A stretch of 64,000 nucleotides of DNA from positions 1 through 64,000 of the forward strand of contig CANRGX010000003.1 in assembly GCA_947630215.1 (NCBI GenBank). The letters run 5' to 3'. This stretch comes from an uncultured Eisenbergiella sp. (GTDB lineage: Bacteria; Bacillota; Clostridia; Lachnospirales; Lachnospiraceae). Below the pieces are notes generated by a model, which was not told the DNA's origin, ran no database searches, and saw nothing but the letters and a program-made list of their open reading frames with translations. Position 1 is the first letter of the stretch; every line of letters starts with the position of its first letter. Both the position numbers and the translations under genes were made by a program. This document shows, piece by piece, positions 23,489 to 62,592 of the stretch.

Positions 23489-24433
23489 TTATGATTTATC
23501 CTGTAAAAGTGTAAAGCTAAGTTCAACCACATCGGTTGTATCGTTTACGTTAGACAGGCTTGCAGTTACATCGAACGAATCTTCCCTAGCGTAACGAATT
23601 ATATCATAATATTTATAGGAGAAGATAGCTTTTCCATCAGGCAGAACTTCGATCAATTTATAGTTATTTCCATGATAAACTGCCAACACGTCTTCAGCTT
23701 GCAACTGGTATTCTTCACCTTCAGATAATTCTTTTTTCAAGCCGGTGACATCGTTCCACACAATAAATGTTGGTGTATCCTTCATGAGATAATTTGCCCA
23801 TTCTTCTCCTGTCATTTTGGCCAGAAGATCTTCTGTAAGGGGTGGGACTATTGTGTAGTCAAAATACGTTCTTTCTCCAGAAAGCGATACTATTCCGAAT
23901 TCATATTCCCCCGGTTCGTAAAATTTCATTTGTATAACGTCGTACGAATCGTAAATGTTTGAACCAATATATATCGCATTCCCAGGAGTAGTAAAAGCAG
24001 AAATTTCCACTGGTCTGTAAAGCACTAATTCATCCCCTTCCCCAAATTCGTAAGTTCCGCCATTTTCCAGAAGCTCACCCTGTTTTTCTATTTTATTCCA
24101 AATACATAATTTACAGTCATCAGATTGCAGAGAGGCGATCCATTCGGCTAAAAATGATTCGTCTTCTGTCATTTGTTCCTGTGAAGGGTAGGTTTCCTCC
24201 AAAACTGTTTCAGTTGCGTTTTCTGTAATTTCTTCTGGTATAAACTCAGTTTTTGGTACTACACATTCGGTTTCCGATGTTTCTGATACCGTTGCAATTT
24301 GTACGGGGTTTTTTGAACTGCCGCATCCGCAAACAGTTTCTGCCGTAAGTGTGAGGGCAAATAAAATGCCTGCCTTGCGAATTAAATTATCTGTTTTTCT
24401 GGCGTTTATTCCATTTTCATACATCGGTTCCAT
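23489..24433 (-). CDS. hypothetical lipoprotein
   Basis: ATG 24433 with AGGAGG; lipobox-like TAETVCGCGSS; no family recognised. Confidence 0.65.
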   Translation of the reverse strand: MEPMYENGINARKTDNLIRKAGILFALTLTAETVCGCGSSKNPVQIATVSETSETECVVPKTEFIPEEITENATETVLEETYPSQEQMTEDESFLAEWIASLQSDDCKLCIWNKIEKQGELLENGGTYEFGEGDELVLYRPVEISAFTTPGNAIYIGSNIYDSYDVIQMKFYEPGEYEFGIVSLSGERTYFDYTIVPPLTEDLLAKMTGEEWANYLMKDTPTFIVWNDVTGLKKELSEGEEYQLQAEDVLAVYHGNNYKLIEVLPDGKAIFSYKYYDIIRYAREDSFDVTASLSNVNDTTDVVELSFTLLQDKS

Positions 24434-24461
24434 TTTCAAATCCTCCTTGTCTCTTTTGCAT

Positions 24462-24502
24462 ATATCTCTTAAAGAGCATTTATCATTCTCTTTTAGAGAT
24501 AT
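24462..24502. promoter_or_regulatory. long inverted repeat, candidate XRE operator
   Basis: ATATCTCTTAAAGAG-N11-CTCTTTTAGAGATAT, arms match 14/15, between the divergent lipoprotein and XRE genes. Confidence 0.6.
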
Positions 24503-24596
24503 TATAAATCTCTTTAGGCTAATTTTCAAGGCTCAATTAAGGAATTATTGTTTTATAAAGAATTTCAATATTAAAAAGCAAAGGAGCAAGGAAAAG

Positions 24597-24914
24597 ATGG
24601 TGAAAGGGGCATTGGGAAATGTGATTAGAAAAAGCCGTATTAGTCTGGGGTATTCACAGGAGGAACTTTCTGAGAAAATAGGGATTACTCCGACTCACAT
24701 GAAACATTTGGAAAGTGAGCATCGAAAGCCGTCCCTTGAAGTATTGATTCGGCTAATGGAAACGCTTGGCTTTTCTTTTGACGCACTGGTATTCCCTTCA
24801 TCGGATAACACTATTCAAAATGAGTGGTTAGCGCTTCTTTCCAATTGCACCGAATCTGAGCAAAATATTATCAGAGATATGGTTATTTCCATCAAAAAGA
24901 ATCATTTGACCTGA
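24597..24914 (+). CDS. XRE family transcriptional regulator
   Basis: LGNVIRKSRISLGYSQEELSEKIGITPTHMKHLESEHRKPSLEVLIRL HTH_3. Confidence 0.9.
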   Translation: MVKGALGNVIRKSRISLGYSQEELSEKIGITPTHMKHLESEHRKPSLEVLIRLMETLGFSFDALVFPSSDNTIQNEWLALLSNCTESEQNIIRDMVISIKKNHLT

Positions 24915-45777: not shown

Positions 45778-46650
45778 TAACCGAGTGCCGGTCAACAGCT
45801 CGTAAGCCTGCAGATATTTTTCGATGGTCTGATCCACCACGTCCTGCGGCAGCGTCCAGTCGTTGCCGGGATGGGCTTTGAGCCAGTCGCGGGCGAACTG
45901 TTTGTCAAAGGAGGGCTGGCTGTGTCCCGGCTCGTAGCTGTCGGCGGGCCAGAAGCGGGAGCTGTCGGGCGTCAGCATTTCGTCTCCCAGCACAATCTGC
46001 CCGTTTTCATCCAGACCGAACTCAAATTTGGTATCCGCGATGAGGATGCCCCTGTCCGCGGCATAGTCCGCGCATTTCCGATAGAGGGCAATCGTATAAT
46101 CCCGCAGTTTGGAGGCATATTCCTCTCCCTTGCCGGGAAAGCGTTTTTCCAGATAGTCTATGCTCTGTTCATAGGAAATGTTCTCGTCGTGATCGCCGAT
46201 TTCCGCCTTGGTGGAGGGCGTGTAGATGGGCTCGGGCAGCTTGTCGGACTCTTTGAGCCCCTCCGGCAGCCGGATGCCGCATACGGTACCGTCCTTGACA
46301 TAGCTGGCCCAGCCGCTGCCCGTGATATAGCCGCGGACAATGCACTCGACGGGCAGCATATGCAGCTTCTTGCACAGCATACTGTTGCCGGAGAACCGGG
46401 GCTGGCGGAAAAATGCCGGCATATCTTCCGTGTCCGTGGAGATCATGTGGTTGGGCAGGATGTCCCGCGTCATTTCAAACCAGAACCGGGACATCTGGGT
46501 CAGCACCGTCCCCTTTTTGGTAACGGTGTTGTGCAGGATCACATCAAAACAGCTGATGCGGTCGGTGGCCACCATGATCAGACTGTCGCCGTTGTCATAA
46601 ATTTCGCGTACCTTTCCTTCTTTTATCGGTTTTCTCGTCTCTGTGTTCAT
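45775..46650 (-). CDS. purC: phosphoribosylaminoimidazole-succinocarboxamide synthase
   Basis: KEGKVREIYDNGDSLIMVATDRISCFDVIL; ATG at 46650. Confidence 0.95.
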   Translation of the reverse strand: MNTETRKPIKEGKVREIYDNGDSLIMVATDRISCFDVILHNTVTKKGTVLTQMSRFWFEMTRDILPNHMISTDTEDMPAFFRQPRFSGNSMLCKKLHMLPVECIVRGYITGSGWASYVKDGTVCGIRLPEGLKESDKLPEPIYTPSTKAEIGDHDENISYEQSIDYLEKRFPGKGEEYASKLRDYTIALYRKCADYAADRGILIADTKFEFGLDENGQIVLGDEMLTPDSSRFWPADSYEPGHSQPSFDKQFARDWLKAHPGNDWTLPQDVVDQTIEKYLQAYELLTGTRL

Positions 46651-47010
46651 GTCCTTTCTTACCTCGCTTGTGCGGATTTTGCCGGAACGCAACCGGAAAA
46701 ACGCCTTTCGCCATGCGAAGGGCTGATACCCATAGTTAAACAGATTTCGGGGGAAAATGCAAGGGCCATTTTCAGAAAGATGGTCTGCAGGTTTGTCAAA
46801 CATATGTTGCATTTTGACCTTTTCATTTGTTATTATTTAAGAAGGAGGCCTGTATCCCCAGGAGGATACAGGGAAAAGAGAGGGTTTTAACGGATGTTCT
46901 AAACATGGCTGTTATCCGGACTGGCATCAGAATTGTGGGTATACTAGAGATTAGTCTGATCGATCTCATGGGGTGTGCTGGTTGGAGTGTTGGTGGAGAT
47001 GTCTTGATAA

Positions 47011-47157
47011 GCAAAACAGGGATTTAATAAAGCTATCGAAATATTTCTTCCAGTGGTAGATGATCTGTCAGTTGATCCTGTACTTGATTACCGCGTTGGT
47101 GATGCCTTTTTTCAGTATACTGAAAAAGGATTAGCCATATGGAGATACCTGTTTTAA
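47011..47157 (+). pseudogene. start-less coding remnant
   Basis: Open frame AKQGFNKAIEIFLPVVDDLSVDPVLDYRVGDAFFQYTEKGLAIWRYLF* follows a stop and has no initiator; amphipathic, protein-like. Confidence 0.3.
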
Positions 47158-47349
47158 GTTAGTCGTGGTTCGGCGGTTAGCATATAGCACAAAACGGGTA
47201 TCTTGTTTTTAATTATTAGGTTGTGTTGTATGGAATAGAATCCTACATACACAGTGCATTGGGCGGGGATAGGATTGAGTTTTTTGCGTGTACTATATTT
47301 CGACCACGAATGTTCTGCATTATGACATTTTTCGACGGAGGAAAGACAT

Positions 47350-47703
47350 ATGGTTCGTCCAAGTGATTTTTTAGATAGTATTGACAAAGTTTGCGATATT
47401 ATGAATTTTTGGACTGATATTAACAAACGCAAAATAGCAGATGAAATTTTCTGGCTTGGACAGAATTATGAAAATCCAAACGTTCTGCGTTGCTATATTT
47501 TGAAATGTGCAGATTTTAAAGATAATAAAGCAAATGAATCATATGCGAGGCAGCTGTTTGAATATTCTGATGAGAAAGTACAGAGACTAGCTGATTTGAG
47601 AGCGAATTATTTATACAGTCAGTTGCAGAATCTGCAAAATAGCAAAATAGACCATAAACCTTTGAAAATCATAATTCATGAACTGAAATTACTGGGAAGA
47701 TGA
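47350..47703 (+). CDS. small hypothetical helical protein
   Basis: 117 aa with GGAGGAAAG 5 nt before ATG; no family recognised. Confidence 0.55.
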   Translation: MVRPSDFLDSIDKVCDIMNFWTDINKRKIADEIFWLGQNYENPNVLRCYILKCADFKDNKANESYARQLFEYSDEKVQRLADLRANYLYSQLQNLQNSKIDHKPLKIIIHELKLLGR

Positions 47704-47859
47704 AATCGGGATTAGCGGCGGGTGTTTAAAATAACGTGAGTGCGAATGAGCCCATGTGAATACACTGGCGATGCTGGTGGATATGTTTTATTTTGATGTT
47801 TTTTAGTATAACTTGAGTGTTATGTTGAATTCGCATCTTCAAGGATATTTTATACAAAT

Positions 47860-48065
47860 TCAGGATTCTTCTTTGAATATCTTAAGCAGATCAGCTGCAG
47901 TATAGGGACATACAGCATTTAGCTGTATGTTTTTTTCCTTTCCTGCGATTTCTTCAAATGGTTGATATATGATATCGCAAAAGGGATTTCTTTTTCAAGA
48001 TGATCTGCAATTGCTAATACAACCTGTATGTCAGATTCCACTGAAAAAATGTTCCTTCCCCGGCG
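47860..48065 (-). pseudogene. frameshifted coding remnant of unknown family
   Basis: RRGRNIFSVESDIQVVLAIADHLEKEIPF in one frame continues as CDIIYQPFEEIAGKEKNIQLNAVCPYTAADLLKIFKEES* in the next. Confidence 0.4.
47909..47936 (+). terminator. intrinsic terminator
   Basis: CATACAGC-ATTTA-GCTGTATG followed by TTTTTTT. Confidence 0.6.
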
Positions 48066-48071
48066 CCTCCC

Positions 48072-48269
48072 TTAAACCAGAAGTATTGTCAGCAAATAAT
48101 ACATTATTTCTTTCCGGCCCCTGATAAAATTCCCGCATAATATAAATGTACCTTTACTTGTTAAAATATGAATTCTTTGATTTTGGGTAAATGCTGTTTT
48201 TAAGGGATTTTTCAATCTATTTGGATAATAAAAGTAAATTATTCCATATATATTCTTTGTACAATGCAT
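48072..48269 (-). pseudogene. short ORF, possible LytTR-like fragment
   Basis: MHCTKNIYGIIYFYYPNRLKNPLKTAFTQNQRIHILTSKGTFILCGNF... with GGAGGG Shine-Dalgarno; truncated compared with any LytTR domain. Confidence 0.25.
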
Positions 48270-48453
48270 ATCCCTCCCCCAAAAACGTCCAGTACTCCCA
48301 AAAATGAAACTAAAAAATGAAAAGAAAAAACATGATTAGACGCATCATATATATAGATGTCAAATAAACATTTGTGTGGCACGCAAACACAGAAAAATAT
48401 AACCATTGAATTTGCCAAAAGAAATAAGAGATAATAATTATTTAAAAAATGTA

Positions 48454-48482
48454 TTGAAAACTTGTTTTTAATACTTTAAAAT
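48454..48482 (+). promoter_or_regulatory. candidate promoter of the VWA-tubulin operon
   Basis: TTGAAA - 17 bp - TAAAAT. Confidence 0.35.
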
Positions 48483-48632
48483 AAAAATGGAATTATTATA
48501 ACCAATTAAAGACAGAAAAAATAGTTCAAATTAATTTGGAGAAATTGCGAAAAAATGCAAGAAGTATAATGAATCAAGGTATTGTGATTTGTTAGAAACT
48601 TGGATACGACACACACAAGTAAAGGAGAACAA

Positions 48633-51221
48633 ATGAAAAAGATATGTTGTGTACTGATGATGGGTTTAATAGTATGTGTCATGTCTGGATTTGAAAAGCC
48701 ACCCACAATCGCGGGATTGTCAACAGAAAAAAAAGGGAAAGCAATTAGTGTTATTTTTGATAATTCGTCTTCTATGTATCAAGAAAAGGAAAAGTATACA
48801 AGTAGATGGGTGGAAGCGGATTATGCACTAAAGGCATTGTACGCTATGATGAATTCGGAAGATATTCTTGATTTATATATTATGGGTGATTATAGTGGTG
48901 AAATAGAACCTAAAACTACATCTATATCGAGTATTAGTGATATTGAAAACAAAATGAACGAAATGGTATTTACAGAGATGACATATTTTCAAGGGGTGCA
49001 GAAAGCAGCAAAGTATATGTCAGATAACTATAAAGATAAAGATTGCTGGATTGTAATTTTAACAGATGGCACTTTTAATATGCCAAAAGAATTGTTTCCC
49101 AAATTGCCAAAAAATATGCCACAAGAAGAAATAAATAAGGAACGAGCAAAAATTTTACTAAGGAATCTGAAAACCACAATAGAGGATACAGATATTTCAA
49201 TTGCATATGTGCCAATTGGTGCAGGTGCAACTGATTTATCAGAAATGGATTTGGAACATATTATTACGACGGAAATGAAGGATGATATAATCGGACAGGT
49301 TACCGAAATTATAAATAAAATATATCAAAGGGTAAAACTTGATGAGGAAACTCAAAAAAAATATTTAACCCAAAAAGATACAGGAGACATGAATGTTACG
49401 CTGGATATTCCGCTGGAAAAAATGATAGTCTTTTTTCAGTCATCGGGGCAGGAGGATTTGTATACGAAATTAAATCCGGCTCAGGATCCATGGATGAAGG
49501 AAGAAAATGGCCGGATCAATTTGAATACTCGAAATTCAAAAACTATAAGTGTAGAAGATTCTGTTGTATTTGCGGGCAAGACAGAGCCTCCATCAAAAGA
49601 TTCAACTGTTACAAAATACTCCATAGAAAAATTCAGATATCATATGCTGAAGGGATCCGTATATTGTATAAATGATAGTTTGGGTGATATTACTTCGGTC
49701 CAAATTAAACCTAATGATGCTGCGGTAGATATATATTATCAACCAGCAGTTAACATTAAATTTGAATATTGGCAGGATGGTGTACAAGTAATAAATTGTG
49801 CGGATGAGGAACAGGATTTGGGATTAGAGAATTCTCAATACCTCCAGGAAGGAGAATTTACAGTAAAATTAGTAGCAGTAGACAATAATGGGGAAAAAAT
49901 CAATCAGGATTCCAAATTATTAAATTCAGAAAAATTTGATGTAAAACTTACATCAGAAGGGAAAAATTTTGAACTAAAAAAGGGAAGTAATGCATATGAA
50001 TATAATGTGCAGGCTGACAGAGGGGAATATGAATTGACTGTAACTACTCCATGGAATGAGGTGATTACAACTAATATTTCGGTACAAGAGAAACGAAAGG
50101 CAATTGAAATTGTTAAACCGGACAATACAAAACTTAATATTGACAAAACCGCTGATGGAGAAAGTGATTTTTTTGTAAGTGTGACGGAAAATGGGGAGTC
50201 TCCGTCAGAAGAATCATTGAAACGTATTAAAGTTACCTTGGGAGAATGGGATGCTCAGGATTTTCTGATAGAACCATATGGGGAACCGCGTAAGGGAATA
50301 TGGACATATAGAGTATCCTTGAAAGAGCCGGATAAATTTCAAATTCCTTCGGAGATCACTGTCCCGGTCATTGCGACTCGTGAATATGACTATGGAGAAC
50401 CTGAGAAAGATGTCGAAAATCTTCTTTTTTCGATTATTTCCGAACCGCCAAACTTGACCACAGAACTTAAAGATTATTCTGCCGATCATTGTTATTCAAG
50501 GGTTTTATGGGGAGAAAAAATCCCTATTACTTATTATTGTGACGGTAAGGAACTGCCAAGGGAGCAATATGGTAATATTGAGATAATAGATCTTGATATA
50601 GAACCAAAAGAAATACAGGATTTGATTCGTATAGAAAATGGGGGGATTTTTTTATGCCCAAATCTGAAATGGTTACGCACATATGATGAAACTGTGAAGA
50701 TTGATTATAAATGGAAATTTGAAAGAAGAAATGCAGAGGGAATGGGGGGAAATTTAATCGAGCTCAGAATGACTTATATTTCAAGATGGCAGTTATATTT
50801 GGGATTTATATTGATTATTATAGTATTAATATGGCTTTTCTTGTGTCTGTTAAAACGAAAAACAGGCATTTTTATTAAGCGAAGTAAGGTATACTTATAT
50901 TCAGAGAAAAGCCATGAAACTATTCCGGTAAAACTTCATAGGAAAGCAATGATCTGGATCCCTTTCTGGAAAACTGCTTATATTAAATATGCACGCCCAG
51001 GAGTGTCCAAGCCGCTTGTTGAGGGATTTCAATTAAAAATAATCAAGAATGTGGCAGGAACCGGATATCAGATAAAAAATTATAATGATTTCCTAAATAC
51101 AGAGAAGTATCGAATTGCTGCCCAAGGGATAACAGAGGGAAATTGTATTATTTCTCCAAATTTGCATTTTGAAATCAGGGATAGAAGTAATAACTGGAAA
51201 GAACTCCATATGGAAGAATAG
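48633..51221 (+). CDS. von Willebrand factor A domain membrane protein
   Basis: N-terminal signal/TM; MIDAS motif VIFDNSSSM and ILTDGTFN; C-terminal TM LYLGFILIIIVLIWLFLCLL and cytosolic tail. ATG 48633 after AAAGGAGAAC. Confidence 0.85.
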   Translation: MKKICCVLMMGLIVCVMSGFEKPPTIAGLSTEKKGKAISVIFDNSSSMYQEKEKYTSRWVEADYALKALYAMMNSEDILDLYIMGDYSGEIEPKTTSISSISDIENKMNEMVFTEMTYFQGVQKAAKYMSDNYKDKDCWIVILTDGTFNMPKELFPKLPKNMPQEEINKERAKILLRNLKTTIEDTDISIAYVPIGAGATDLSEMDLEHIITTEMKDDIIGQVTEIINKIYQRVKLDEETQKKYLTQKDTGDMNVTLDIPLEKMIVFFQSSGQEDLYTKLNPAQDPWMKEENGRINLNTRNSKTISVEDSVVFAGKTEPPSKDSTVTKYSIEKFRYHMLKGSVYCINDSLGDITSVQIKPNDAAVDIYYQPAVNIKFEYWQDGVQVINCADEEQDLGLENSQYLQEGEFTVKLVAVDNNGEKINQDSKLLNSEKFDVKLTSEGKNFELKKGSNAYEYNVQADRGEYELTVTTPWNEVITTNISVQEKRKAIEIVKPDNTKLNIDKTADGESDFFVSVTENGESPSEESLKRIKVTLGEWDAQDFLIEPYGEPRKGIWTYRVSLKEPDKFQIPSEITVPVIATREYDYGEPEKDVENLLFSIISEPPNLTTELKDYSADHCYSRVLWGEKIPITYYCDGKELPREQYGNIEIIDLDIEPKEIQDLIRIENGGIFLCPNLKWLRTYDETVKIDYKWKFERRNAEGMGGNLIELRMTYISRWQLYLGFILIIIVLIWLFLCLLKRKTGIFIKRSKVYLYSEKSHETIPVKLHRKAMIWIPFWKTAYIKYARPGVSKPLVEGFQLKIIKNVAGTGYQIKNYNDFLNTEKYRIAAQGITEGNCIISPNLHFEIRDRSNNWKELHMEE

Positions 51222-51237
51222 GGAAGGAGAACAAAAG

Positions 51238-54200
51238 ATGAGAGCTCCATCGATGGTTATAGGTGTAGGGGGTATAGGCGCAGATATATGTGCGCGTGTT
51301 GCACGGCAGTTATCAGAAAATATGCCGGATAAGAATTCTATCCAGTTTGCAATTATGGATACGGATATTAATACCATCCATGAATTACATAGGGAAGGAT
51401 TCAGAGGCATTGAAATTCAATTATCTGATAACAGAACAGTCAAAAACTGTAGAGAAAGTATATTGGATCGGTTGGACGACTGGTATCCCCAAAGTGATAT
51501 CTTTGATAGAAAATCGATGACAGAAGGGGCCGGACAGCAGCGTTCTATTTCCAGACTGGCATTTGATTATTCTCTACGTGAAAATAAACTGGATGAATTG
51601 TTTCATGCGCTTCGGGAATTAAAAGAAGTTGCTTTGGATGCCAGTGATCAGCAAATTAGGATTTATATTATCAGTTCCCTGGCTGGCGGAACTGGTTCTG
51701 GAATTATATTGCCTTTAGCATTGTGCCTGAACCGATACATTCAGAAAACATTTGGAGATAATCTTGCGCTGTGCAAGGGATTTTTTGTCCTTTCGAGTGC
51801 GATAAAGAACAATGTTAAACATAAACTCGAAAAACAAAGTCTTGATTCAAACGCGTATGCAACAGTAAAAGAGTTGGATGCATTTATGAGACTGGCAGAT
51901 GGAGATAATGCGCGTTATCAGAATCTGGGTATACATATTCCGGACGGAGAGTCATACGAATATCAAAAATATATGGATAGTTCGTATGAATACTGCTATC
52001 TGTTTGGAATGATTAATGATGAAAAAAATGGCTTACATTCTTTTGAGGATTTAAAGAATCAAGTGGCCATGGCTGTTTATTTACAAGCATGCAGTCCTAT
52101 ACATAATAGGAATAATTCGAGAGAAGACAATACTCTGAAATTTCTGATTCAGCGGATGATTGCAAAGGGCTCCAATAAATTAAGCCGGTTCGGAAGCATT
52201 GGCTGTGGGGAATTGGTATATCCATATGATATACTTAGACGCTATTATGCAATAAGAAGAGCTGTGACAGTCATGGAAAGACAGTGGCAGGTTTATGATG
52301 AAATTTACCAAAAAAAAGATATGGAACAATATAAAAGAAGAAAGGAAGGGAAAAAATCTGTTCCTGTTAAGAGAAGTACAGAATATATTACTGCAGTAAA
52401 ATATGCTGATAAAACAGATTCTTTTGCTGAAATGATTCGTGTATCCTGTTTCAGGGATGAAAAAGATTATGCCTGGGATGGGTATTTAGATGCGCTTTGG
52501 AATGAGGCTGGTAAATATATAGACGAAATTCGAAAAACGAAGGAAACGGATGAAAGTAGTGATGAATACGCAGTTTCAACTGTAATGGATATTCTAATGG
52601 GTAAGTCGAATCGAAGAAGTAAAATTGATGCCAGAAACAGAATGCTGGAATATTTTAGAAATATGCGTTCCGATGTGTTGACCCGGAGTAATGAGTTGGG
52701 TACGCAGCTCGAGCATACATTGTTTTCCCTTCATCCGCTAATAGAAGAACTGTCAGTTAATTCTATGGAATACTGGCTGCGTCAAGGGGAAAACTTTCTT
52801 CATCCAAATGCAGTAAGGTATTTTTTATATAATTTACTGGATGCAATTCAAGTTAAAATGAAGAAAGTTGAAGGTGAAGCACAAATCGAATATAGTAAAT
52901 TGAGCTTTGTAGACTCAGACCAGAAGGTAAACAAAGGAAATTATTATGCATTTTATTTTCTGAATCTAAAAAAAGAATGGGAAAAATATGATAAAGCAAA
53001 GGAAGCGCTTTATGCTTATGCCAAGAGAAAAGTTTATTTGCAGATGTTGGAAAGCTGCAAATCCTATGCAGAAAAATTATGTACGAATTATGAAAACTTT
53101 TATGATTCATTAGGAACTATTCTGGACAATTTTAAAGATGAATTAGCTGTTTTAGAGGAACGGCTAAATAGAACAAAAGGAATGGGAAAAGCATTTATAT
53201 GTAGTGATAAAGAGTGTAGAGATATAGTTTTCGGCGAAATTCAGAGAAAAAGCAATTTTTCCATGTCGAGCACAGGACTTTCATATCTGATATTTGAACT
53301 GATGGGGAAATCTGAAGATGAAATATATCGAAAAGATGCTCTGATAGAACGGATTAAAGAATATTGGATTAAGGATATTGAATGGGAATATCCGGAATTA
53401 AATATGAATATTTTGCATGCTATGGACATGGAGTGCTTTTGTAAAAATAAAATACATATGAACGAAGAAATGTTTAAAAATCAAATTAGAAATGCGGAAA
53501 AGAAATTAGTAGCACCGTATTTGTTATATAAGACAATTTCGGGAGAACATCAAGGTATTTCTATTTCCTGCTTTAATAGCGAATTAGAATCGGAGAAAGA
53601 TATATATCATGATGTTTTTACCTGGCTAAAAGAAAACGACGGAATTGAGGATGAGTTTTTCTGTGATAAATACAGAATTATGTTTTATCGATCATTTGTG
53701 GGCTTAGATGCCTATGAAGTTTTGGAATATTATCATGATGGAAAGGAAAAAAGTGGAGAGGCATTTATTTCTTATGAGAAAATGATAGAAAATATGGGAA
53801 ATACAAAAGATGGAAATATGCAGATTACACCACATGTAGATAAGAAATGGAATAGTATTCTTGAACTTCCGGATCCGAATTTCTTTTATCAAAATAAAAA
53901 GGAAATTGAAATCGGCTGTGTTTTTCTATTTGCAATTTTGGAAGGAAAATTTAGAAAAATGGATTCTGGAAGTTATGATTTCACATTGTCTGATTCGGGA
54001 AAAAAATTTGAGAATTTGATGTCATGTCATGAGTTCCTTTATGAAAATCAGTGGTGGGAACATCTGTTGTTGGAACAATTGGAAGAATGCTTAAGAAAAG
54101 AAGACTCAGAAGGGAAATGTGTATTGCTGGAAAGTATTCATAATTATGATGATGGTATCCTGTCAATTATATATAACTATAATTTTGAAGTGCCGATCCC

Positions 54201-54426
54201 AAAACAGGATAGTGTAAGAAACACGATTCTAATTAATGCAGCCAAGTATTTGCTTGCTAATTGCTTCAAAGGGGAAAAATCTGCAATTGATAGGATGTGT
54301 AAGGAGGAAATGGAGTATGCAGCAGATAAAGTGAGAGAAAAAATGGATGAGGATAAAGTTAAGGGACTTAAGGAGATGCTGGTAAGTTTTTATAGGAAAA
54401 ATGGATATCGCTGGGATAAAGAATAA
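51238..54426 (+). CDS. tubulin/FtsZ-like GTPase (Tubulin_2 / FtsZL-type), large
   Basis: N-terminal PSMVIGVGGIGADICARVARQL and FAIMDTDINTI; tubulin signature-like loop IISSLAGGTGSGIILPLALCL. ATG 51238 after GGGAAGGAG. Confidence 0.8.
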   Translation: MRAPSMVIGVGGIGADICARVARQLSENMPDKNSIQFAIMDTDINTIHELHREGFRGIEIQLSDNRTVKNCRESILDRLDDWYPQSDIFDRKSMTEGAGQQRSISRLAFDYSLRENKLDELFHALRELKEVALDASDQQIRIYIISSLAGGTGSGIILPLALCLNRYIQKTFGDNLALCKGFFVLSSAIKNNVKHKLEKQSLDSNAYATVKELDAFMRLADGDNARYQNLGIHIPDGESYEYQKYMDSSYEYCYLFGMINDEKNGLHSFEDLKNQVAMAVYLQACSPIHNRNNSREDNTLKFLIQRMIAKGSNKLSRFGSIGCGELVYPYDILRRYYAIRRAVTVMERQWQVYDEIYQKKDMEQYKRRKEGKKSVPVKRSTEYITAVKYADKTDSFAEMIRVSCFRDEKDYAWDGYLDALWNEAGKYIDEIRKTKETDESSDEYAVSTVMDILMGKSNRRSKIDARNRMLEYFRNMRSDVLTRSNELGTQLEHTLFSLHPLIEELSVNSMEYWLRQGENFLHPNAVRYFLYNLLDAIQVKMKKVEGEAQIEYSKLSFVDSDQKVNKGNYYAFYFLNLKKEWEKYDKAKEALYAYAKRKVYLQMLESCKSYAEKLCTNYENFYDSLGTILDNFKDELAVLEERLNRTKGMGKAFICSDKECRDIVFGEIQRKSNFSMSSTGLSYLIFELMGKSEDEIYRKDALIERIKEYWIKDIEWEYPELNMNILHAMDMECFCKNKIHMNEEMFKNQIRNAEKKLVAPYLLYKTISGEHQGISISCFNSELESEKDIYHDVFTWLKENDGIEDEFFCDKYRIMFYRSFVGLDAYEVLEYYHDGKEKSGEAFISYEKMIENMGNTKDGNMQITPHVDKKWNSILELPDPNFFYQNKKEIEIGCVFLFAILEGKFRKMDSGSYDFTLSDSGKKFENLMSCHEFLYENQWWEHLLLEQLEECLRKEDSEGKCVLLESIHNYDDGILSIIYNYNFEVPIPKQDSVRNTILINAAKYLLANCFKGEKSAIDRMCKEEMEYAADKVREKMDEDKVKGLKEMLVSFYRKNGYRWDKE

Positions 54427-54428
54427 TT

Positions 54429-56192
54429 ATGTATACAATAATTATGTATAATCAGGTAGAACCCATTTCTATAGAGAGGTATCAATTTATTTTTTCGAGT
54501 TATGTCGAAGAACACAAAATTGCATTGTTTCAATGGAATGATAAGACTTCTCTTGAAAAAATGGTAGAAACATTGGAAATATTGACCGAGGTACATCATG
54601 AATGGAGACTAATCATTTTTGATGGGGCAAGAGATTTATCCAAATTCGGTGTTCGGTTTGCCATGGATGTGAAAATAAGGGAACTGATTTCGCGATATGC
54701 AAACAATGGAAGATACCCTGAATTTCCCATTCGGGGCTGTTTGCCACAGTATGTATTGTATCTTACATACCGTAAAATGGGGACAGATCCATTTATTTCT
54801 TCCCAACAATTTTGGAAAGTAGATGAAATGAGAGAATTTGGGACAAACTTTAGGATGCTATGGACGGAAATAGATTTCTGCTGTGAATTAAATATGCAAT
54901 TTGATTTGTTCCGGTTAGCTTGTGCTCTGCTTACATTGGCAATTAACGAATCATTATTGGAAATGGACTATGGGTTTTTATATCAAATCAATATAAATAT
55001 AGAAAGGGAGCTTTTCGCTAAATATGTTATAAAGAAAACAGATCAAATAAAAAAAATTGAACGATTGCTTGAAGAAGAAAATATTAAGTTGTACGGACGA
55101 AAAAAAGGGGATAATGATTATCCCGAAATAGAAGTAAAAATATCAGTTCTTCAAGGGATGCATAATAAAATGAATGCAGATATAGGAACTGAGAAGATAG
55201 GGCGTGCAGATTTAAAGGATATTGCAAAATTAAAAAATAAACTTGAGAAAGATAAGCGAGTGGTCAGGGCACGGTTATATTTTCCAAAGGGAGTTTTAAG
55301 GGATGAGGCCTCGAATATACAGGAGTGGGTATCCAAAAAGGCCAGAGTAGGTGGATTTTTAAATGAGGCAGGTATTGATAGATTAGAAAGAGAAAAATGG
55401 GAAATAATAAAAGAAATATGCATGCTTAAACCAAAACAAATGCGTCAACATGAATTTGAGGAATGCTTTGCTGAAGATCAGGAAAATCTGGTAAAGAGAG
55501 CAGAAAGGAAATGGAGCATCCCTTTAAGTTTATTATTACTGTGCTGTTTGGAATTCATAGAATGTATCATGCTGTTTCCATTCATATATTACGCAAACAA
55601 AGTAGGTAATAATTTATCATGGCTTGCAAAATTTCTTTCAATGTTTACAGAAGAAAATCAATCCAAGAGGTTTTTCCTCCGAGGAGGAGTAATTATCTTC
55701 GTGATTATTATATCCTTATATGTACTATTTTCTTTCATTCTGGATCAAACTACAATTAAGAAATATAAAAGAGATATAAAGAAAAAATTGCAAATAAAAC
55801 AAGTCGAAAAAATGGAATATATGGAAAAGATGCTGGGCTTGGTAGCGGAATATCAATATTGTATAAGATTGGAAGAAGAACAGTTTGAATTGCTAAATAA
55901 TTGGGAATTTCAAAGGAAATGCCTATATCGGCATCGGGCTGTATGGAAGAACAGCATCATAATGTGTGAACAACTAAAGCATCTGATGGTTGAACAGGGG
56001 ACAAGTTCATATGGATGTGAATTTATACATATAAAATTTGGAGATGAACCGCAGGAAATTGAGTATTATTGGCTTCCTTATAAAGATAAAATATATTTGG
56101 CACCATTAAACAGAAGCGGCCGACAAGTAAATGTGCCGTTTGATTTTATTACAAAAGTAACAATAGTAAAAACTCGTAAAATCTGGCAATAA
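54429..56192 (+). CDS. two-TM coiled-coil protein of unknown function
   Basis: Two hydrophobic helices (SLLLLCCLEFIECIMLFPFIYYA; GGVIIFVIIISLYVLFSFIL) between charged helical regions; 2 bp after the tubulin-like gene. Confidence 0.7.
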   Translation: MYTIIMYNQVEPISIERYQFIFSSYVEEHKIALFQWNDKTSLEKMVETLEILTEVHHEWRLIIFDGARDLSKFGVRFAMDVKIRELISRYANNGRYPEFPIRGCLPQYVLYLTYRKMGTDPFISSQQFWKVDEMREFGTNFRMLWTEIDFCCELNMQFDLFRLACALLTLAINESLLEMDYGFLYQININIERELFAKYVIKKTDQIKKIERLLEEENIKLYGRKKGDNDYPEIEVKISVLQGMHNKMNADIGTEKIGRADLKDIAKLKNKLEKDKRVVRARLYFPKGVLRDEASNIQEWVSKKARVGGFLNEAGIDRLEREKWEIIKEICMLKPKQMRQHEFEECFAEDQENLVKRAERKWSIPLSLLLLCCLEFIECIMLFPFIYYANKVGNNLSWLAKFLSMFTEENQSKRFFLRGGVIIFVIIISLYVLFSFILDQTTIKKYKRDIKKKLQIKQVEKMEYMEKMLGLVAEYQYCIRLEEEQFELLNNWEFQRKCLYRHRAVWKNSIIMCEQLKHLMVEQGTSSYGCEFIHIKFGDEPQEIEYYWLPYKDKIYLAPLNRSGRQVNVPFDFITKVTIVKTRKIWQ

Positions 56193-56223
56193 GAATTGAA
56201 AAACATAAGAAAAGGAATGTGTC

Positions 56224-59200
56224 ATGGAAACTCTTTCAAAAGCTATTTTTTATATTTTAGGTGAAGTATTGGGAGATTCTTCGTTTTTCCTGGCATATTA
56301 TTCGGACAAAAAAATAGTCCCGCTGATTAAGCAACAAAGAAAGAATTATGTATTAATGCCCGCACTTTCTGTTTTTTTCTCAATGGTAGCCATTGGAATG
56401 TGTGCTATGACCAGAGAAATATTACGAGAATTGTATTTATATATAGTTTCTTTTTATCCGGGCATAAGAGAATTAAAAAATCTTGTTCTGCAAATTCTGA
56501 ATGTTTTCCCAAATGTATCAAGCATGTATACATATATGTTTTTCTATCGCCTGTTTAGAAATAAAGGAGAAGATATAATTGTAAAACTTGGGTGTGATGT
56601 TAACAATAAGTATAGAAATTTCTTAGGTATATATTGTGATAATGAATTAACTGGAGAGTCTGTATTGTCAAAAGAATGGGAAAATGTTTCAGATCACTTA
56701 TCCATTGTAATATTGGTGGATTTGATTATTCTGGGGGTATTACATTCGAATTTAGTTGGAATGCCAATTCAAAATTTAGCTTATTTTGAGGTTTATGAAT
56801 TAATCCCGATTGCGACAATTTCATTTTTGCTGGAGTTATCCTATTTTCTTGGCTATCGGAAATTAAAAATATGGGAATTTTTTGGCTCGAAAAGGAAAAA
56901 ACATGAATCCGACTGGAAAATGGATTTGATTGATATGAGAACTAAGGCAATTGAAATTGCCCAGGCCGATAATGCAAAAGTAAAGTTAGAGTTTGTACGA
57001 GGGAATACCGGATTTGAAAATGAAATAAGGAAGGCTTTCGAACAGTACCAGGAAATAAATGATCCTGAAGTACAATATTTTCGAGTTTATTTGGAGACGA
57101 GGAAATTTCATTATCCATATCATATACATTGTATTGATACGACAGTCCGATTGATTCAAGGAGAAAGTATTTTTTTCGCGACACCTTTCTATCACGATAT
57201 TGATATATGTATTTTTTTCCCCGCTTATATGGCATTACTGAGAAATGAGAAAGTGTTAATTTTAGTTGAAGATACAGGAAATTTGGAAGAAATAGCGTTA
57301 TGGATTAAAAATGGAATAGAACAAATCCCTGATTTGATTGATTTTTGGAAATTTGACATTCTGAGTAAATTGGTCGATAGTACAGATGTAGGCATTATGG
57401 CATTTCAGGATGTGGATAAGGAAGAAGTTATTCAATGGCAAAGGGATTTTTTGTCACGTGTATCTTTTGTGGTAATTATAAAGGCATCAGATATTTTAAC
57501 AGCGGGACAGGAGGTAGTTTCTGCGTTAGCATCAAAAATTGGGAAAAATGTAAAGAAATGTGTTTGGCTGTTATGCGATAGAAATGCCGAGAGCATGATT
57601 GATCTATTTGCCCACTTATTGAATCAGGAAATGCATTTTGTGGCAGCAACTCCCAGGAGAGCAAAAGAGTCATTGACGGCATATTGGGATGCGGAGTGTG
57701 AGAAGGAGAAGGTGTGGGAACCTGCTAATAGATATTTAGGGGTGGAAGCAAGAATTGCAGAACTCGCGGGGAGGGAAAAAATTCCTTTGGTCGAATGGTA
57801 TGGGGAAGAAACAGTACCAATATACGATTTGAACTGGATTCTTGGTCAATACTATATGCAATATGCGGCGAGAACTATGCTAAAACCGCATCAGCTTCAG
57901 TTACAATGGCATATCGATTGTGAGATTTCAGGGAATACAGGAGAGCTTTGCAATGATAAATTTATTGTTGTAGAGGATTATTGTTTCAATCTATATGAAA
58001 TGGGGAGACAGTACGCTTCCAGGGCAGTAAACAAAGCTTTTGTTCATATTATTTCACCAAAGTATATGCTTCGGGATTTTATGAAGAGTGAGGATATTGC
58101 CATGAATGCGGATCCTAAGTATATAACTCAATTTGTACCCGAATATGTGGATTCTATTCGTAATATTACTCTAAGATTAATCCGGGATATGCTCGAGGAC
58201 TCACTTTCGGAAAATTATATTCGGGCAATGCTGAAAAAAAGTGAAGAAGAAACCGTAACGGAGGTATCTGTTGATAGTTTAAAGAAATTAATCAGGTTAG
58301 TTTTCTATGATATAGAAGATGCGGAAATTATGGTGACTTATCGAAGCGAATTTTCCGAGAGATGGGATGAAATCGGACAAGTTGCTTATTATCGCATCAT
58401 TGATGAACGTGTGAGGAAAGAATTTAAAAGATACTTTACGCAAGCAAGTTATATCGATGAGGAAGGGATAAAAAGACACATTAGCAGATTAATGCTGGCA
58501 GGACATTTAGAGCAGAAATATCAGTTGGGGCAGTATGTTACCTTAGATGGGAAATATTACGAAATTGTTGGAAACGTATCGGAAAATTACGATCAATCCT
58601 TGTTGGTAAAACGGGCATCAGATCAAATTAACGGAAGAAAATATTACCGTCAAAGGCGGTGGTATAAAGTTATAGATAATGGTGATTCGGATAATAAAAC
58701 AAGCGAGCTCAAGTTTCAAGATAGTAAGGTGATTGTTACAAGGTGCTATATGAGCATTGAAGCCTATACTTATGGATATGTATGTATGGATTCCTGGAAT
58801 AATATTGCAGGAGGGGAAGAAGTTTTTAATCCTCTTTATGAGAATAAGAAAAGACGGTATCAGAGAAAGCAAATACTGAAAGTAGAATTACCTAACGTAC
58901 CGGATAAGGATCCTCTGACGTGCTGGTTAGCAGCAATGTTAAATGAAATGTTTTGTACACTTTATCCACAATATTATCATTTGCTTTCTGTTGCGGTGGA
59001 CAGAATGCATTATGCGAATACAGAAATTTCTGATGAAATTTTGTACACAGTTTTGGCAGGAATTTCGACAGATACAGAAGAAGCTGATACAGGGAAGGAA
59101 TTTGCAAAAAATGCTTTTTATATTTTAGAAGATAGCCGGGAAGATATGGGATTGCTTCGTTCTATTGAAAGAAACTTTCAAAGAATTATTAATATTATAA

Positions 59201-59259
59201 TAGACTATGTCTCATGGAGTGAAAGAGTAAATGATGACTATTTTAAGTTTGGAGCATAA
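56224..59259 (+). CDS. large membrane protein with degenerate helicase-like core
   Basis: N-terminal TM helices; region FHYPYHIHCIDTTVRLIQGESIFFATPFYHDIDICIFFPAYMALLRNEKVLILVED...DVGIMAFQDV...FVVIIKASDIL laid out like SF2 helicase motifs without Walker A or DEAH residues. Confidence 0.6.
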   Translation: METLSKAIFYILGEVLGDSSFFLAYYSDKKIVPLIKQQRKNYVLMPALSVFFSMVAIGMCAMTREILRELYLYIVSFYPGIRELKNLVLQILNVFPNVSSMYTYMFFYRLFRNKGEDIIVKLGCDVNNKYRNFLGIYCDNELTGESVLSKEWENVSDHLSIVILVDLIILGVLHSNLVGMPIQNLAYFEVYELIPIATISFLLELSYFLGYRKLKIWEFFGSKRKKHESDWKMDLIDMRTKAIEIAQADNAKVKLEFVRGNTGFENEIRKAFEQYQEINDPEVQYFRVYLETRKFHYPYHIHCIDTTVRLIQGESIFFATPFYHDIDICIFFPAYMALLRNEKVLILVEDTGNLEEIALWIKNGIEQIPDLIDFWKFDILSKLVDSTDVGIMAFQDVDKEEVIQWQRDFLSRVSFVVIIKASDILTAGQEVVSALASKIGKNVKKCVWLLCDRNAESMIDLFAHLLNQEMHFVAATPRRAKESLTAYWDAECEKEKVWEPANRYLGVEARIAELAGREKIPLVEWYGEETVPIYDLNWILGQYYMQYAARTMLKPHQLQLQWHIDCEISGNTGELCNDKFIVVEDYCFNLYEMGRQYASRAVNKAFVHIISPKYMLRDFMKSEDIAMNADPKYITQFVPEYVDSIRNITLRLIRDMLEDSLSENYIRAMLKKSEEETVTEVSVDSLKKLIRLVFYDIEDAEIMVTYRSEFSERWDEIGQVAYYRIIDERVRKEFKRYFTQASYIDEEGIKRHISRLMLAGHLEQKYQLGQYVTLDGKYYEIVGNVSENYDQSLLVKRASDQINGRKYYRQRRWYKVIDNGDSDNKTSELKFQDSKVIVTRCYMSIEAYTYGYVCMDSWNNIAGGEEVFNPLYENKKRRYQRKQILKVELPNVPDKDPLTCWLAAMLNEMFCTLYPQYYHLLSVAVDRMHYANTEISDEILYTVLAGISTDTEEADTGKEFAKNAFYILEDSREDMGLLRSIERNFQRIINIIIDYVSWSERVNDDYFKFGA

Positions 59260-59956
59260 TAGGAACGAAATGGAACAAAATTATAATTGGAAAGAAAGTT
59301 TTTTAAATTATATCAAAGAAAAGGACAGTAATCAAGAAGAACGTACGAATAGAGTGATTTCTGGAAATGTTTGTGATTATTGCGGCGGAGAATTGAAGGA
59401 TTATGTTCATATTGGTGAAAACAATATGTGTATGAATTGCAGGGAGGAACTCGCAAAATCAAAGACGGAAATTGTAAACATAGTCAATGATGGTATATGT
59501 AACTTTGCTTATTTGTATGGATTCTCAGTGAAAAGAAAATTAAAAATTCAGGTAAAAAAATATAGGATTAGAAAAAAATTTGAAAAAAAACGCCAGTTAT
59601 TTCAAAATAATAATAGTATTAAAATAATTAAAAAAAGGAAATTTGATAAAGTGATTATACCGGAATATATGCCAAAACATTTAATTTTAGCATATTTGAC
59701 GGCATATGGAGCAAAATATTGTATGAAAACATCTGATACGGAACGGGAAGTAAAAAATGAGGATGGGCTGATTCTGTGGATGGTAATTAACTATCTTTTT
59801 GTGACAGGTTATAAGGAATTTGCTGCACGACTAGAAGAATATCAAAAAAATCAAGATGACAATGGAGACTATAAGATATGGTACGGAAAAACGGGGACAC
59901 CATTGACGGAAAAAAGGGTAATATCGGGCGATTTGTTGACAGATAAGAGTAAGTAG
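59231..59956 (+). CDS. LIM-like zinc-ribbon protein with degenerate DA1-like peptidase region
   Basis: CDYCGGELKDYVHIGENNMCMNC; C-terminal IPEYMPKHLILAYLTAYGAKYCM...EDGLILWMVINYLFVTGY resembles the DA1-like layout without HExxH. Overlaps upstream gene by 29 bp. Confidence 0.55.
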   Translation: MMTILSLEHNRNEMEQNYNWKESFLNYIKEKDSNQEERTNRVISGNVCDYCGGELKDYVHIGENNMCMNCREELAKSKTEIVNIVNDGICNFAYLYGFSVKRKLKIQVKKYRIRKKFEKKRQLFQNNNSIKIIKKRKFDKVIIPEYMPKHLILAYLTAYGAKYCMKTSDTEREVKNEDGLILWMVINYLFVTGYKEFAARLEEYQKNQDDNGDYKIWYGKTGTPLTEKRVISGDLLTDKSK

Positions 59957-60174
59957 ACTACTTATATATTATCATCAAAACTTTGGCTTCGAGGCTGGAA
60001 AAAAGACCGTTCCGCTCTATGCCGCATTTTGTATTTGAACCTGTAAGGCAATCGGTAACGTTCCCTTATAAGTTGAGAGTTTTTCTAAAGCCATAAAAAG
60101 GTTAAAATACATCAACTAAATTGATTAAATTTACCTCTTGCGGAATAGAAGGTGCTATGGTAAGCTGAATATCG

Positions 60175-60549
60175 TCGCAGAGGCATGGCAGAGGAGAACG
60201 CGGCAGCAAAGCTGCCCCGACGTATGCGGATGCGGGGAAACGCGAGGATGAGGACTAGTAGCCTTTCTGTTGGCAAGCAGAGAACTGCCGGGCGGTGCGA
60301 GGCAGTCAGAGACGAAAGGGGAACTGACCTCGGAGCGGCTGTCCGAAGGCCGGTGGATTTTGCTGTGCATTGCCGGTTGTGTAGGCGCAGACGGAATTTC
60401 CGCCGTGAAAAGGGAACAGGCATCCGGCCCGTTTGTGGGAGCCCGTGCCGACGAGCGCATGGCACAGCCATGAAATAGAGTGGTACCGCGCAAGAGGATT
60501 TTGCGTCTCTATGAAAACGTCTCCGAGGGGAGTTTTCATGGAGACATTT
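60175..60549 (+). promoter_or_regulatory. T-box leader (leucine-type) upstream of leuA
   Basis: T-box sequence TGGTACCGCG at 60481-60490 in an antiterminator; specifier-like GAACTGACCTCGG (CTG at 60325-60327); terminator GTCTCC...GGAGACATTTTTTT. Confidence 0.88.
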
Positions 60550-60597
60550 TTTTGTAAGTTGCAGAGAAGTTATCGGGAAGGAAAAGGAGAAAATCCC

Positions 60598-62592
60598 ATG
60601 GACGTGAAAGAAAAATACGGAAAATCTTATTTTATGCCCCCTGTGATCACCTACGACTGGGTGAAGAAGGATACCATTACAAAGGCGCCTGTCTGGTGCA
60701 GCGTGGACTTGCGGGACGGCAATCAGGCGCTGATCGAGCCCATGAGTCTGGAGGAGAAGCTGGAGTTTTTCAATCTCCTTGTGGAAGTTGGCTTTAAGGA
60801 GATCGAAGTGGGATTTCCGGCGGCCTCCGACACGGAATATCAGTTTGTACGCGCGCTGATCGAACGAAATATGATCCCGGAGGATGTGACCATCCAGGTG
60901 CTGACCCAGGCCAGGGATCACATCATCCGCAAGACCTTTGAAGCGGTCAAGGGAGCGCCCCGGGCCATCATTCATCTTTACAATTCCACCTCGGTGGCAC
61001 AGCGGGAGCAGGTGTTTAAAAAGAGCAAGGAAGAAGTGAAAAAGCTGGCCGTAGACGGCGCCAGGCTGCTGGCGCAGATCGCGTCGGAGATGGAGGGCAA
61101 TTTCGCCTTTGAATACAGTCCGGAGAGTTTCCCGGGCACAGAGGTGGAGTACGCGCTGGAGGTTTGCAATGCGGTGCTGGATGTCTGGCAGCCCACGGCA
61201 GAGCGAAAGGCCATCATCAATATTCCCACCACGGTGCAGATTGCCATGCCCCATGTGTTTGCCTGCCAGGTGGAATATCTGCATAAAAATATGAAATACC
61301 GGGACGCGGTGGTTTTGAGCGTCCATCCCCACAATGACCGGGGCTGCGGCGTCAGCGACGCGGAGTTCGGCGTGCTGGCGGGGGCGGACCGCATAGAAGG
61401 GACGTTGTTTGGCAACGGCGAGCGCACCGGGAACGTGGATCTGGTGACGGTGGCCATGAATATGGTCTGTCACGGAGTGGAGCCCGGGCTGGATTTCCAC
61501 GATGTGAGCCGGATCCGGCAGGTGTACGAGCGCCTTACCGGGATGCGTGTGCATGAGCGCACGCCCTATGCGGGAGATCTGGTGTTTACGGCTTTTTCCG
61601 GTTCCCATCAGGACGCGATTTCCAAGGGTATGGCCTGGCGGAAAGAAGGAAAGAGCAAAGAACGCTGGGAAGTGCCCTATCTTCCCATCGATCCCAGGGA
61701 TGTGGGACGCGAGTACGAGTCCGATGTCATCCGCATCAACAGCCAGTCCGGCAAGGGCGGCGTGGCCTTTATTCTGAAGCAGAACTTCGGGATCAATCTG
61801 CCGGATAGGATGAAGGAAGAAGTGGGGTATCTGGTTAAGGGCGTCTCCGATAAACGGCACCAGGAGCTGTCCCCGGCGGAAATCCATCAGATTTTCGAGG
61901 ATAAGTACATCAACCGCAGCGATGTGTTTACGGTGCCGGAATGTCATTTCCGGCAGGTGGACGGCATTCAGGCGGAAGTGACGATTGAGCAGAACGGCGT
62001 CCGCCGCGTGGTAAATGCCGGCGGCAACGGGCGTCTGGATGCGGTCAGCAACGCCATTAAGAGCTATTTTGGCATCAGCTATGAGCTTTCCGTTTATGAG
62101 GAGCATGCCATTTCCCGCGGGTCTTCCTCCAAGGCGGCGGCCTATGTGGGACTTTCCCATCAGGGCAGGATGTACTGGGGCGCGGGGATTGATGAGGACA
62201 TCATCAAAAGCTCCATCGCGGCGCTGGTATCCGCAGCCAATCAGCTGGCCCTGGCGGAGAACTGCATGGAAGGCCGGGAGGAACGCATCATCGAGATTAT
62301 GAATTATATCCAGGGGCATTACGTGGATGTGACGCTGGAAGGGCTGGCGGAGCAGTTCCATCTGTCCGCCCCTTACCTTTCCAAGTATATCCGCCAAAAG
62401 ACCGGCGGGACGTTCCAGGAGGCCGTGAAGCGGGCGCGCATGAAGAAGGCGCGCACGCTGTTGAAGGATTCCGGTCTGAAGGTGGAGACGGTGGCCGCAA
62501 ATGTGGGCTATGAGAACGTGGAGCACTTCAACCGGCTGTTTAAAAAGACGTATGGGATGACGCCGCTGCAGTTCCGGAGCCGGAACCGGTGA
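60598..62592 (+). CDS. leuA: 2-isopropylmalate synthase (type 2) fused to C-terminal AraC-type HTH domain
   Basis: LeuA catalytic ([41 protein letters not shown]), LeuA dimer domain, then [101 protein letters not shown] 60598 after AAGGAAAAGGAG. Confidence 0.92.

What the first reader, a model, noticed from the sequence alone, without database searches (positions are those of the whole stretch)
48633..59956. Five-gene AT-rich operon: VWA protein, tubulin-like GTPase, two membrane proteins and a LIM-like protein
Seen: five same-strand genes with gaps of 2-31 bp or overlaps, in AT-rich sequence between GC-rich housekeeping genes. Gene 1 has a VWA MIDAS motif and TM. Gene 2 has the N-terminal GVGGIG and AGGTGSG loops of the tubulin/FtsZ superfamily. 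Genes 3-4 have TM helices and gene 5 has paired CxxC motifs. Established knowledge (recalled): FtsZ-like Tubulin_2/FtsZL families have been linked by gene context to VWA proteins and predicted membrane remodelling (Makarova and Koonin 2010). Inference: this is a membrane-anchored tubulin-like system whose last three components I cannot match to a described set. It could act in membrane remodelling, surface assembly or defence.
Basis: partly seen in the sequence, partly recalled or inferred. Interest (0 to 1): 0.88.

Follow-up and report, generated by a model that had tools for sequence, protein, structure and literature searches.

The report
Tubulin-based membrane machine with pseudo-helicase
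A gut bacterium carries a horizontally acquired block of genes for a conserved but uncharacterised membrane machine built on a tubulin relative and a membrane-bound protein shaped like a helicase that has lost its engine, and in some relatives the same machine sits beside a type VII-like protein-export motor and its likely secreted toxins.

Summary
The five genes are real and correctly placed, in a ~13.3-kb AT-rich island (46783-60102) absent from the same purC-leuA site in a congener. Gene 2 is an FtsZl1/Tubulin_2 protein (E 1.4e-46). The order VWA, Tubulin_2, g3, g4 is kept in 54 of 54 Clostridia loci with enough upstream sequence. New here: (i) a model of a g4 relative (pLDDT 85) matches the SF2 helicase MrfA (Foldseek E 4.9e-24), but the ATPase motifs are missing: a membrane-anchored pseudo-helicase. 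(iii) In one clade (13 of 66 loci) an EccC-like T7SS ATPase follows, usually with WXG100-like pairs and toxin fusions; EssB and EsaA are undetected in those genomes. (iv) An Azospirillum plasmid carries VWA, Tubulin_2 and a g4 homologue. Best reading: an envelope scaffold or export platform, recruited at least once for type VII-like secretion. VWA-FtsZl1 linkage was known in 2010; the pseudo-helicase, peptidase and secretion links were not found in the literature searched. The window copy lacks EccC and WXG parts, so its cargo is unknown.

The parts
46783..60102 (.). Inserted AT-rich island between purC and leuA
   Evidence: Congener G317 aligns to window 46363-46782 and 60103-60916 with about 98 bp between; GC drop; flanking genes at the matching places in G317
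48633..51221 (+). g1: VWA protein, 862 aa; N-terminal signal-like segment, MIDAS, C-terminal TM 721-739
   Evidence: VWA_2 E 1.1e-5; hydropathy and motif
48759..48773 (+). MIDAS motif DNSSS of g1
   Evidence: residues 43-47
51238..54426 (+). g2: FtsZl1/Tubulin_2 GTPase-like protein, 1062 aa
   Evidence: PF13809 E 1.4e-46; invariant GxGGxG and GGTGxG in family alignment
51262..51279 (+). Loop T1 motif GVGGIG of g2
   Evidence: residue 9
51682..51702 (+). Loop T4 motif AGGTGSG of g2
   Evidence: residues 149-155; G150, G151, T152, G153 and G155 invariant in 8 relatives
54429..56192 (+). g3: 587 aa; N-terminal alpha/beta domain, long coiled coil with two TM helices
   Evidence: AlphaFold model pLDDT 77.5; TM 368-386 and 420-438; family alignment
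56224..59259 (+). g4: 1011 aa; membrane-anchored SF2 pseudo-helicase
   Evidence: profile match 1192 bits; MrfA fold of a relative; ATPase motifs missing
59231..59956 (+). g5: 241 aa; split-off four-Cys finger plus degenerate peptidase module of g4
   Evidence: aligns with the C-terminus of relatives' g4
59372..59440 (+). Four-Cys finger of g5 (C48, C51, C67, C70)
   Evidence: sequence and alignment
59675..59689 (+). KHLIL of g5 at the place of HE[LM]TH in relatives (dead active site)
   Evidence: alignment; 75 of 77 relatives keep HExxH

Best explanation
The operon encodes a divergent member of a conserved four-protein envelope machine. Proposed arrangement: VWA g1 displayed outside the membrane on a C-terminal TM anchor; the FtsZl1-type GTPase g2 assembling beneath the membrane as a filament or lattice; the coiled-coil TM protein g3 as connector; and the polytopic pseudo-helicase g4 as the main membrane-cytosol platform, normally carrying a zinc-finger metallopeptidase at its C-terminus that would mature or clear substrates. 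In one Clostridia clade this platform serves a type VII-like export motor (EccC-like ATPase) with WXG100-like substrates and toxin fusions, taking the place of the usual EssB/EsaA membrane parts. In the window the peptidase module is a separate gene with a dead active site and there is no EccC or WXG partner, so this copy would use the scaffold for another, unknown cargo or signal. Shown: gene set, order, families, fold, motif losses, EccC/WXG neighbours, island insertion. Inferred: topology, assembly, export role, substrate processing.
For: Tubulin_2 E 1.4e-46 and VWA match; order kept in 54 of 54 loci, 58 of 60 contiguous; MrfA fold E 4.9e-24 on a pLDDT 85 model; no Walker A at motif I in 72 sequences; HExxH in 75 of 77 relatives; EccC-like gene directly downstream in 13 of 66 loci, EccCa profile E 2.5e-21, FtsK_SpoIIIE E 8.4e-17 and WXG100/EspC-like plus toxin-domain neighbours; EssB and EsaA undetected in the 13 genomes, control rings in B. 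subtilis; separate EccC-VWA-Tubulin_2 neighbourhood in G194; g4 and full-length g2 homologues in Azospirillum.
Against: EccC sits beside the core in only one clade and is absent with WXG100 from the window genome, so secretion may be a late recruitment. G025 has EccC and WXG-like genes without the core nearby. WXG100 matches are below cut-off. The fold was modelled on a relative, not on the window protein. No expression or interaction data. Most genomes are MAGs, so absences are weak.
Confidence: 0.42

Rival explanations
1. A defence or stress-sensing membrane complex: the VWA-tubulin-pseudo-helicase assembly senses invading nucleic acid or envelope damage and triggers a response through the peptidase or neighbouring effectors.
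For: Thermaceae plasmids place VWA and Tubulin_2 beside BrxL, and two of the three also have methylase and helicase genes nearby; TIR, RyR/TrkA and Castor-like channel genes recur near the Clostridia operons; sparse, island-like distribution; helicase fold.
Against: No convincing PADLOC match (one weak Cmr6 hit, E 0.005); the middle protein of the Thermaceae operon shows no detectable homology to g3 and BrxL is absent from the Clostridia loci inspected; TIR and channel neighbours occur in a minority of loci.
Confidence: 0.22
2. General membrane remodelling, vesicle formation or surface assembly driven by FtsZl1 polymers, as predicted in 2010, with EccC/WXG linkage incidental.
For: Prediction for VWA-FtsZl1 operons (PMC2875224); TM-rich partners; most loci lack EccC.
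Against: No membrane-remodelling domain found; EccC linkage is same-strand and immediate in 13 loci; a pseudo-helicase and a peptidase are not needed for simple remodelling.
Confidence: 0.2
3. The window copy is a decaying or functionally inert acquisition.
For: HExxH lost in g5 where 75 of 77 relatives keep it; extremely long branch of window g2 (4.03 changes per column); absent from 11 of 13 congeners.
Against: Five long intact ORFs with RBS-like leaders, MIDAS intact, tubulin loop motifs intact. Splitting of g4 also occurs in L052, L079, L094, L099 and L101 with HExxH intact.
Confidence: 0.12

Closest known systems
FtsZl1 (Tubulin_2, PF13809) - VWA operons of Makarova and Koonin 2010 (PMC2875224)
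   Same: Long FtsZl1 protein next to a VWA protein with intact MIDAS and TM-rich lineage-specific partners
   Different: Partners g3 and g4, the pseudo-helicase fold, the finger-peptidase and the EccC/WXG neighbours are not in the main text; no OmpA, kinase or GTPase genes in this operon. The supplementary family list could not be read
Type VII secretion system (EccC/EssC ATPase, WXG100 substrates)
   Same: In one clade of relatives an EccC-like ATPase, WXG100-like pairs and WXG-toxin fusions lie next to the core operon
   Different: No EssB/YukC or EsaA detected in those genomes; WXG matches are sub-threshold; the window genome has neither EccC nor WXG100
MrfA, DUF1998-type SF2 helicase
   Same: Fold of the g4 soluble part (Foldseek E 4.9e-24)
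   Different: Membrane-anchored, no Walker A or DExH at the expected places, no Pfam helicase or DUF1998 match
DA1 (plant LIM-peptidase; PMC5322733)
   Same: Cys-rich zinc finger followed by an HExxH peptidase with a downstream Glu
   Different: Only one four-Cys finger, HE[LM]THIWQ rather than HEMMH-x15-EE, no PF12315 match; HExxH lost in the window
BREX-associated VWA-tubulin-BrxL clusters of Thermaceae plasmids
   Same: VWA gene directly before a Tubulin_2 gene, then a ~680-aa unknown protein
   Different: Shorter tubulin (903-911 aa), unknown protein not detectably related to g3, BrxL follows, no g4

Membership tests
FtsZl1 / Tubulin_2 family (PF13809) | Tubulin_2 profile match above the curated cut-off | tested here: met
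   159.8 bits against a cut-off of 27, E 1.4e-46
FtsZl1 / Tubulin_2 family (PF13809) | Nucleotide-binding glycine loops T1 and T4 | tested here: met
   GVGGIG and AGGTGSG, invariant glycines in relatives
FtsZl1 / Tubulin_2 family (PF13809) | Adjacent VWA gene with intact MIDAS | tested here: met
   g1 DNSSS; VWA_2 26.5 bits, just below its cut-off of 27
FtsZl1 / Tubulin_2 family (PF13809) | GTPase activity and polymerisation | not testable with these tools
   needs purified protein
Type VII secretion system | EccC/EssC-type ATPase in the window genome | tested here: not met
   only an FtsK-like weak match, E 6.7e-4
Type VII secretion system | WXG100 substrates in the window genome | tested here: not met
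   nothing over the cut-off, best E 0.295
Type VII secretion system | EccC-type ATPase next to the core operon in relatives | tested here: met
   13 of 66 loci; EccCa E 2.5e-21
Type VII secretion system | EssB/YukC or EsaA membrane proteins in the EccC-type relatives | tested here: not met
   0 of 13 genomes for both; mostly MAGs
SF2 helicase / MrfA (DUF1998) | Two RecA-like lobes of MrfA fold | tested here: met
   model of a g4 relative: 6znp E 4.9e-24, probability 1.0
SF2 helicase / MrfA (DUF1998) | Walker A and DExH motifs | tested here: not met
   nPFY.Dl..Y and EPS at those places
DA1-like LIM peptidase | LIM (eight ligands) plus PF12315 peptidase | tested here: not met
   four Cys only; no PF12315 match; HExxH lost in window g5
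Known anti-phage defence system | PADLOC profile match | tested here: not met
   only a weak Cmr6 hit to g2 at E 0.0052, no stretch passing on its own

The most novel reading that the evidence does not exclude
The VWA, Tubulin_2, coiled-coil and pseudo-helicase-peptidase complex is the membrane apparatus of a previously undescribed type VII-like secretion system in gut Clostridia, in which a tubulin-family GTPase lattice and a dead helicase fold replace the EssB/EsaA or EccB/D/E components.
Probability: 0.35. Interest if true: 0.88.

Novelty: new variant of a known kind. Interest (0 to 1): 0.72.

Why it matters
FtsZl1 tubulins were described in 2010 and no functional study of them turned up in the library searched. 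This operon family gives them a fixed four-protein partner set, identifies the largest partner as a membrane-bound SF2 pseudo-helicase that is fused to a zinc peptidase in most relatives, and, through the EccC/WXG clade, gives a testable hypothesis for the machine's cargo. If right, it would add a tubulin-family component to bacterial protein export and a new role for a helicase fold.

Tried and rejected
NCBIfam and PHROGs gave nothing useful for the window proteins; PADLOC gave one weak, implausible Cmr6 hit. A full LIM domain for g5 was rejected (four Cys only) and DA1 membership was rejected (no PF12315). No plasmid or viral carriage of the window operon was found: viral contigs empty, plasmids hold only distant tubulins. 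No tRNA in the window and no convincing long direct repeat flanking the island. PDB sequence search found no solved relative of g4 or g2. The g3 fold search gave only weak generic alpha/beta hits, best E 0.016. No homology was detected between g3 and the Azospirillum or Thermaceae candidate proteins. EccC as a universal partner was rejected. Literature searches found no paper linking FtsZl1 with WXG100, EccC or DUF1998; the library lacks most subscription journals and bioRxiv.
Full report
OBSERVATION. Gene 1 has a VWA_2 match just under Pfam's cut-off (E 1.1e-5), the MIDAS DNSSS, an N-terminal hydrophobic segment and a C-terminal TM. Gene 2 matches Tubulin_2 PF13809 at E 1.4e-46 and is the only such gene in the 2.57-Mb assembly. 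The unit is an acquired island: the closest congener (G317, 94-95% identical flanking proteins) aligns to the window up to 46782 and again from 60103 with about 98 bp between, so ~13.3 kb is inserted between purC and leuA. Two other congeners have about 2 kb of other sequence at the same site. Only 2 of 13 genomes of the genus have a g2 relative, the window's own and one other.

CONSERVATION. A search of 396 genomes of the same family found g2 relatives in 11 including the window's own. Seven had VWA, Tubulin_2, a ~650-700-aa protein and a 1100-1550-aa protein in the same order; three were a different, shorter Tubulin_2 type. A GTDB-wide scan with the g4 alignment returned 79 loci, nearly all labelled Clostridia. 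In all 54 with at least 8.5 kb upstream of g4, g1, g2 and g3 lie upstream on the same strand in that order; 58 of 60 complete loci are strictly contiguous. The distribution is sparse (2 of 398 genomes of the phylum). Window g2 is a very long branch, placed (SH-aLRT 84, uncertain) beside a clade that holds all the EccC-type loci.

GENE 4 AND GENE 5. In relatives g4 is mostly 1300-1970 aa, and its C-terminal part carries CxxC...CxxC and then HE[LM]THIWQ...YEG. 75 of 77 such modules keep HExxH; of the other two, one is cut off at the edge of the fetched stretch and one has HELTR. Window g5 aligns to this module (phmmer E 1.6e-4 to L017; co-linear in the multiple alignment), keeps the four Cys, and has KHLIL at the HExxH place. 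Splitting with HExxH intact also occurs in L052, L079, L094, L099 and L101. Pfam sees only weak metallopeptidase matches (DUF6782 E 1.9e-5 in L019). Plant DA1 has a comparable finger-HExxH layout (PMC5322733) but its family profile does not match.

PSEUDO-HELICASE. A model of residues 196-1323 of a g4 relative (L032), from 51 sequences, has pLDDT 85 and pTM 0.81. Foldseek's best PDB matches are the DUF1998 helicase MrfA (6znp, E 4.9e-24, probability 1.0), followed by Hel308, Pol theta and Lhr. At the expected motif I the family has nPFY.Dl..Y, and at motif II EPS. No Walker A occurs there in any of 72 sequences; the seven pattern hits lie elsewhere. Window g4 belongs to the family (1192 bits). 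That these motifs correspond is inferred from sequence order, not from a superposition. No Pfam helicase or DUF1998 profile matches by sequence.

GENE 3. The model (pLDDT 77.5) has an N-terminal alpha/beta domain, a long coiled coil and a small C-terminal beta unit; two TM helices are predicted. No significant fold match was found.

TYPE VII-LIKE CLADE. In 13 of 66 loci with enough downstream sequence an EccC-like gene starts within 2.5 kb after g4 on the same strand, and as the next gene in 13 of 68. Full copies match EccCa at E 2.5e-21 and 6.1e-23 and solved EccC/YukB, with invariant P-loop (GAS.SGKST) and LDEF residues. In L065 and L078 (and L014) only its N-terminal coil (195-208 aa) is left. 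Seven of these loci also have 90-116-aa WXG100/EspC-like proteins (weak but repeated matches); longer proteins share that N-terminus, one fused to a papain-fold toxin domain, and one locus has an ADP-ribosyltransferase domain. The T7SSb membrane proteins EssB/YukC and EsaA are undetected in all 13 genomes, while the control rings in B. subtilis. So the four-gene core is the only co-encoded membrane apparatus noticed there. A separate locus in G194 has EccC-like, VWA and Tubulin_2 genes adjacent. Against a universal link: of 49 searched carriers without an adjacent EccC, none has a full-length member of this subfamily elsewhere (two weaker FtsK-domain matches only), the window genome lacks EccC and WXG100, and EccC is confined to one clade.

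WIDER CONTEXT. An Azospirillum ramasamyi plasmid has a near full-length g2 homologue (E 1.9e-94) and a VWA-like protein (E 7e-9), and an 1118-aa TM protein that hhalign aligns over 391 columns of g4 (E 2.8e-5, probability 74%) with co-linear motifs and no peptidase, Walker A or cysteine finger. The tubulin-VWA-pseudo-helicase core thus appears to cross phyla, and the peptidase looks like a Clostridia addition. Three Thermaceae plasmids have VWA, Tubulin_2, a protein not detectably related to g3 (tested for one) and BrxL (in one case after an IS element), two of them near methylase and helicase genes, which keeps a defence reading alive. In Clostridia, transglutaminase-like proteins directly follow g4 in 13 loci, and RyR/TrkA and Castor-Pollux-like channels and TIR proteins recur nearby.

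MECHANISM AND VERDICT. The best reading is an envelope scaffold: VWA outside, tubulin lattice inside, coiled-coil connector, pseudo-helicase platform with a peptidase, used in one clade for type VII-like export. Anatomy, order, families, g4 fold and neighbours are shown. Topology, polymerisation, export and processing are inferred. Makarova and Koonin 2010 (PMC2875224) described FtsZl1-VWA operons and predicted membrane remodelling; their supplementary family list could not be read, so g3 or g4 may be among their unnamed families. No paper found here links FtsZl1 to EccC/WXG or to a helicase fold. I file it as a new variant of the FtsZl1-VWA kind. The window copy itself is a divergent, peptidase-dead member of unknown cargo.

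Noticed in passing
window 60155-60560: Leader upstream of leuA with GGTACCGCG and a terminator-like hairpin, resembling a T-box riboswitch; Rfam at gathering threshold gave no match.
   Followed up: partly
window 47350-48600: A 117-aa orphan ORF (47350-47703) and about 900 bp of AT-rich sequence without a clear gene precede the operon inside the island; no family match better than chance.
   Followed up: partly
window 23489-24914: A second, small AT-rich patch (GC 0.39) with a lipoprotein-like ORF and an XRE-type HTH ORF between housekeeping genes.
   Followed up: no
L128:13930-16490 and L128:17287-19901: Two tandem Tubulin_2 genes both change frame at the same nearly identical sequence (FFCRTSTSAFQK*): possible programmed frameshift, gene conversion or assembly error.
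   Followed up: partly
L125:5170-13349: EccC-like ATPase with WXG-like pair and transglutaminase-like protein beside a serine recombinase-like gene, without the tubulin core nearby.
   Followed up: partly
L137, L138, L139 (Thermaceae plasmids): VWA, Tubulin_2, unknown protein and BrxL in a row, two of three near methylase and helicase genes: a possible tubulin-containing BREX-like defence cluster.
   Followed up: partly
L066:16047-17915, L078:14939-16864, L050:14906-17023 and others: RyR plus TrkA_N proteins and Castor-Pollux-like channels, often adjacent to each other, recur on the same strand near the operon in many Clostridia loci.
   Followed up: partly
L141:14944-26051 (Azospirillum sp. 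TSA2s plasmid p2): A Tubulin_2 gene among caspase-family and OmpA-family genes.
   Followed up: no
L056:9977-13975: The only uncut relative other than the window with a changed peptidase motif (HELTR instead of HELTH).
   Followed up: no
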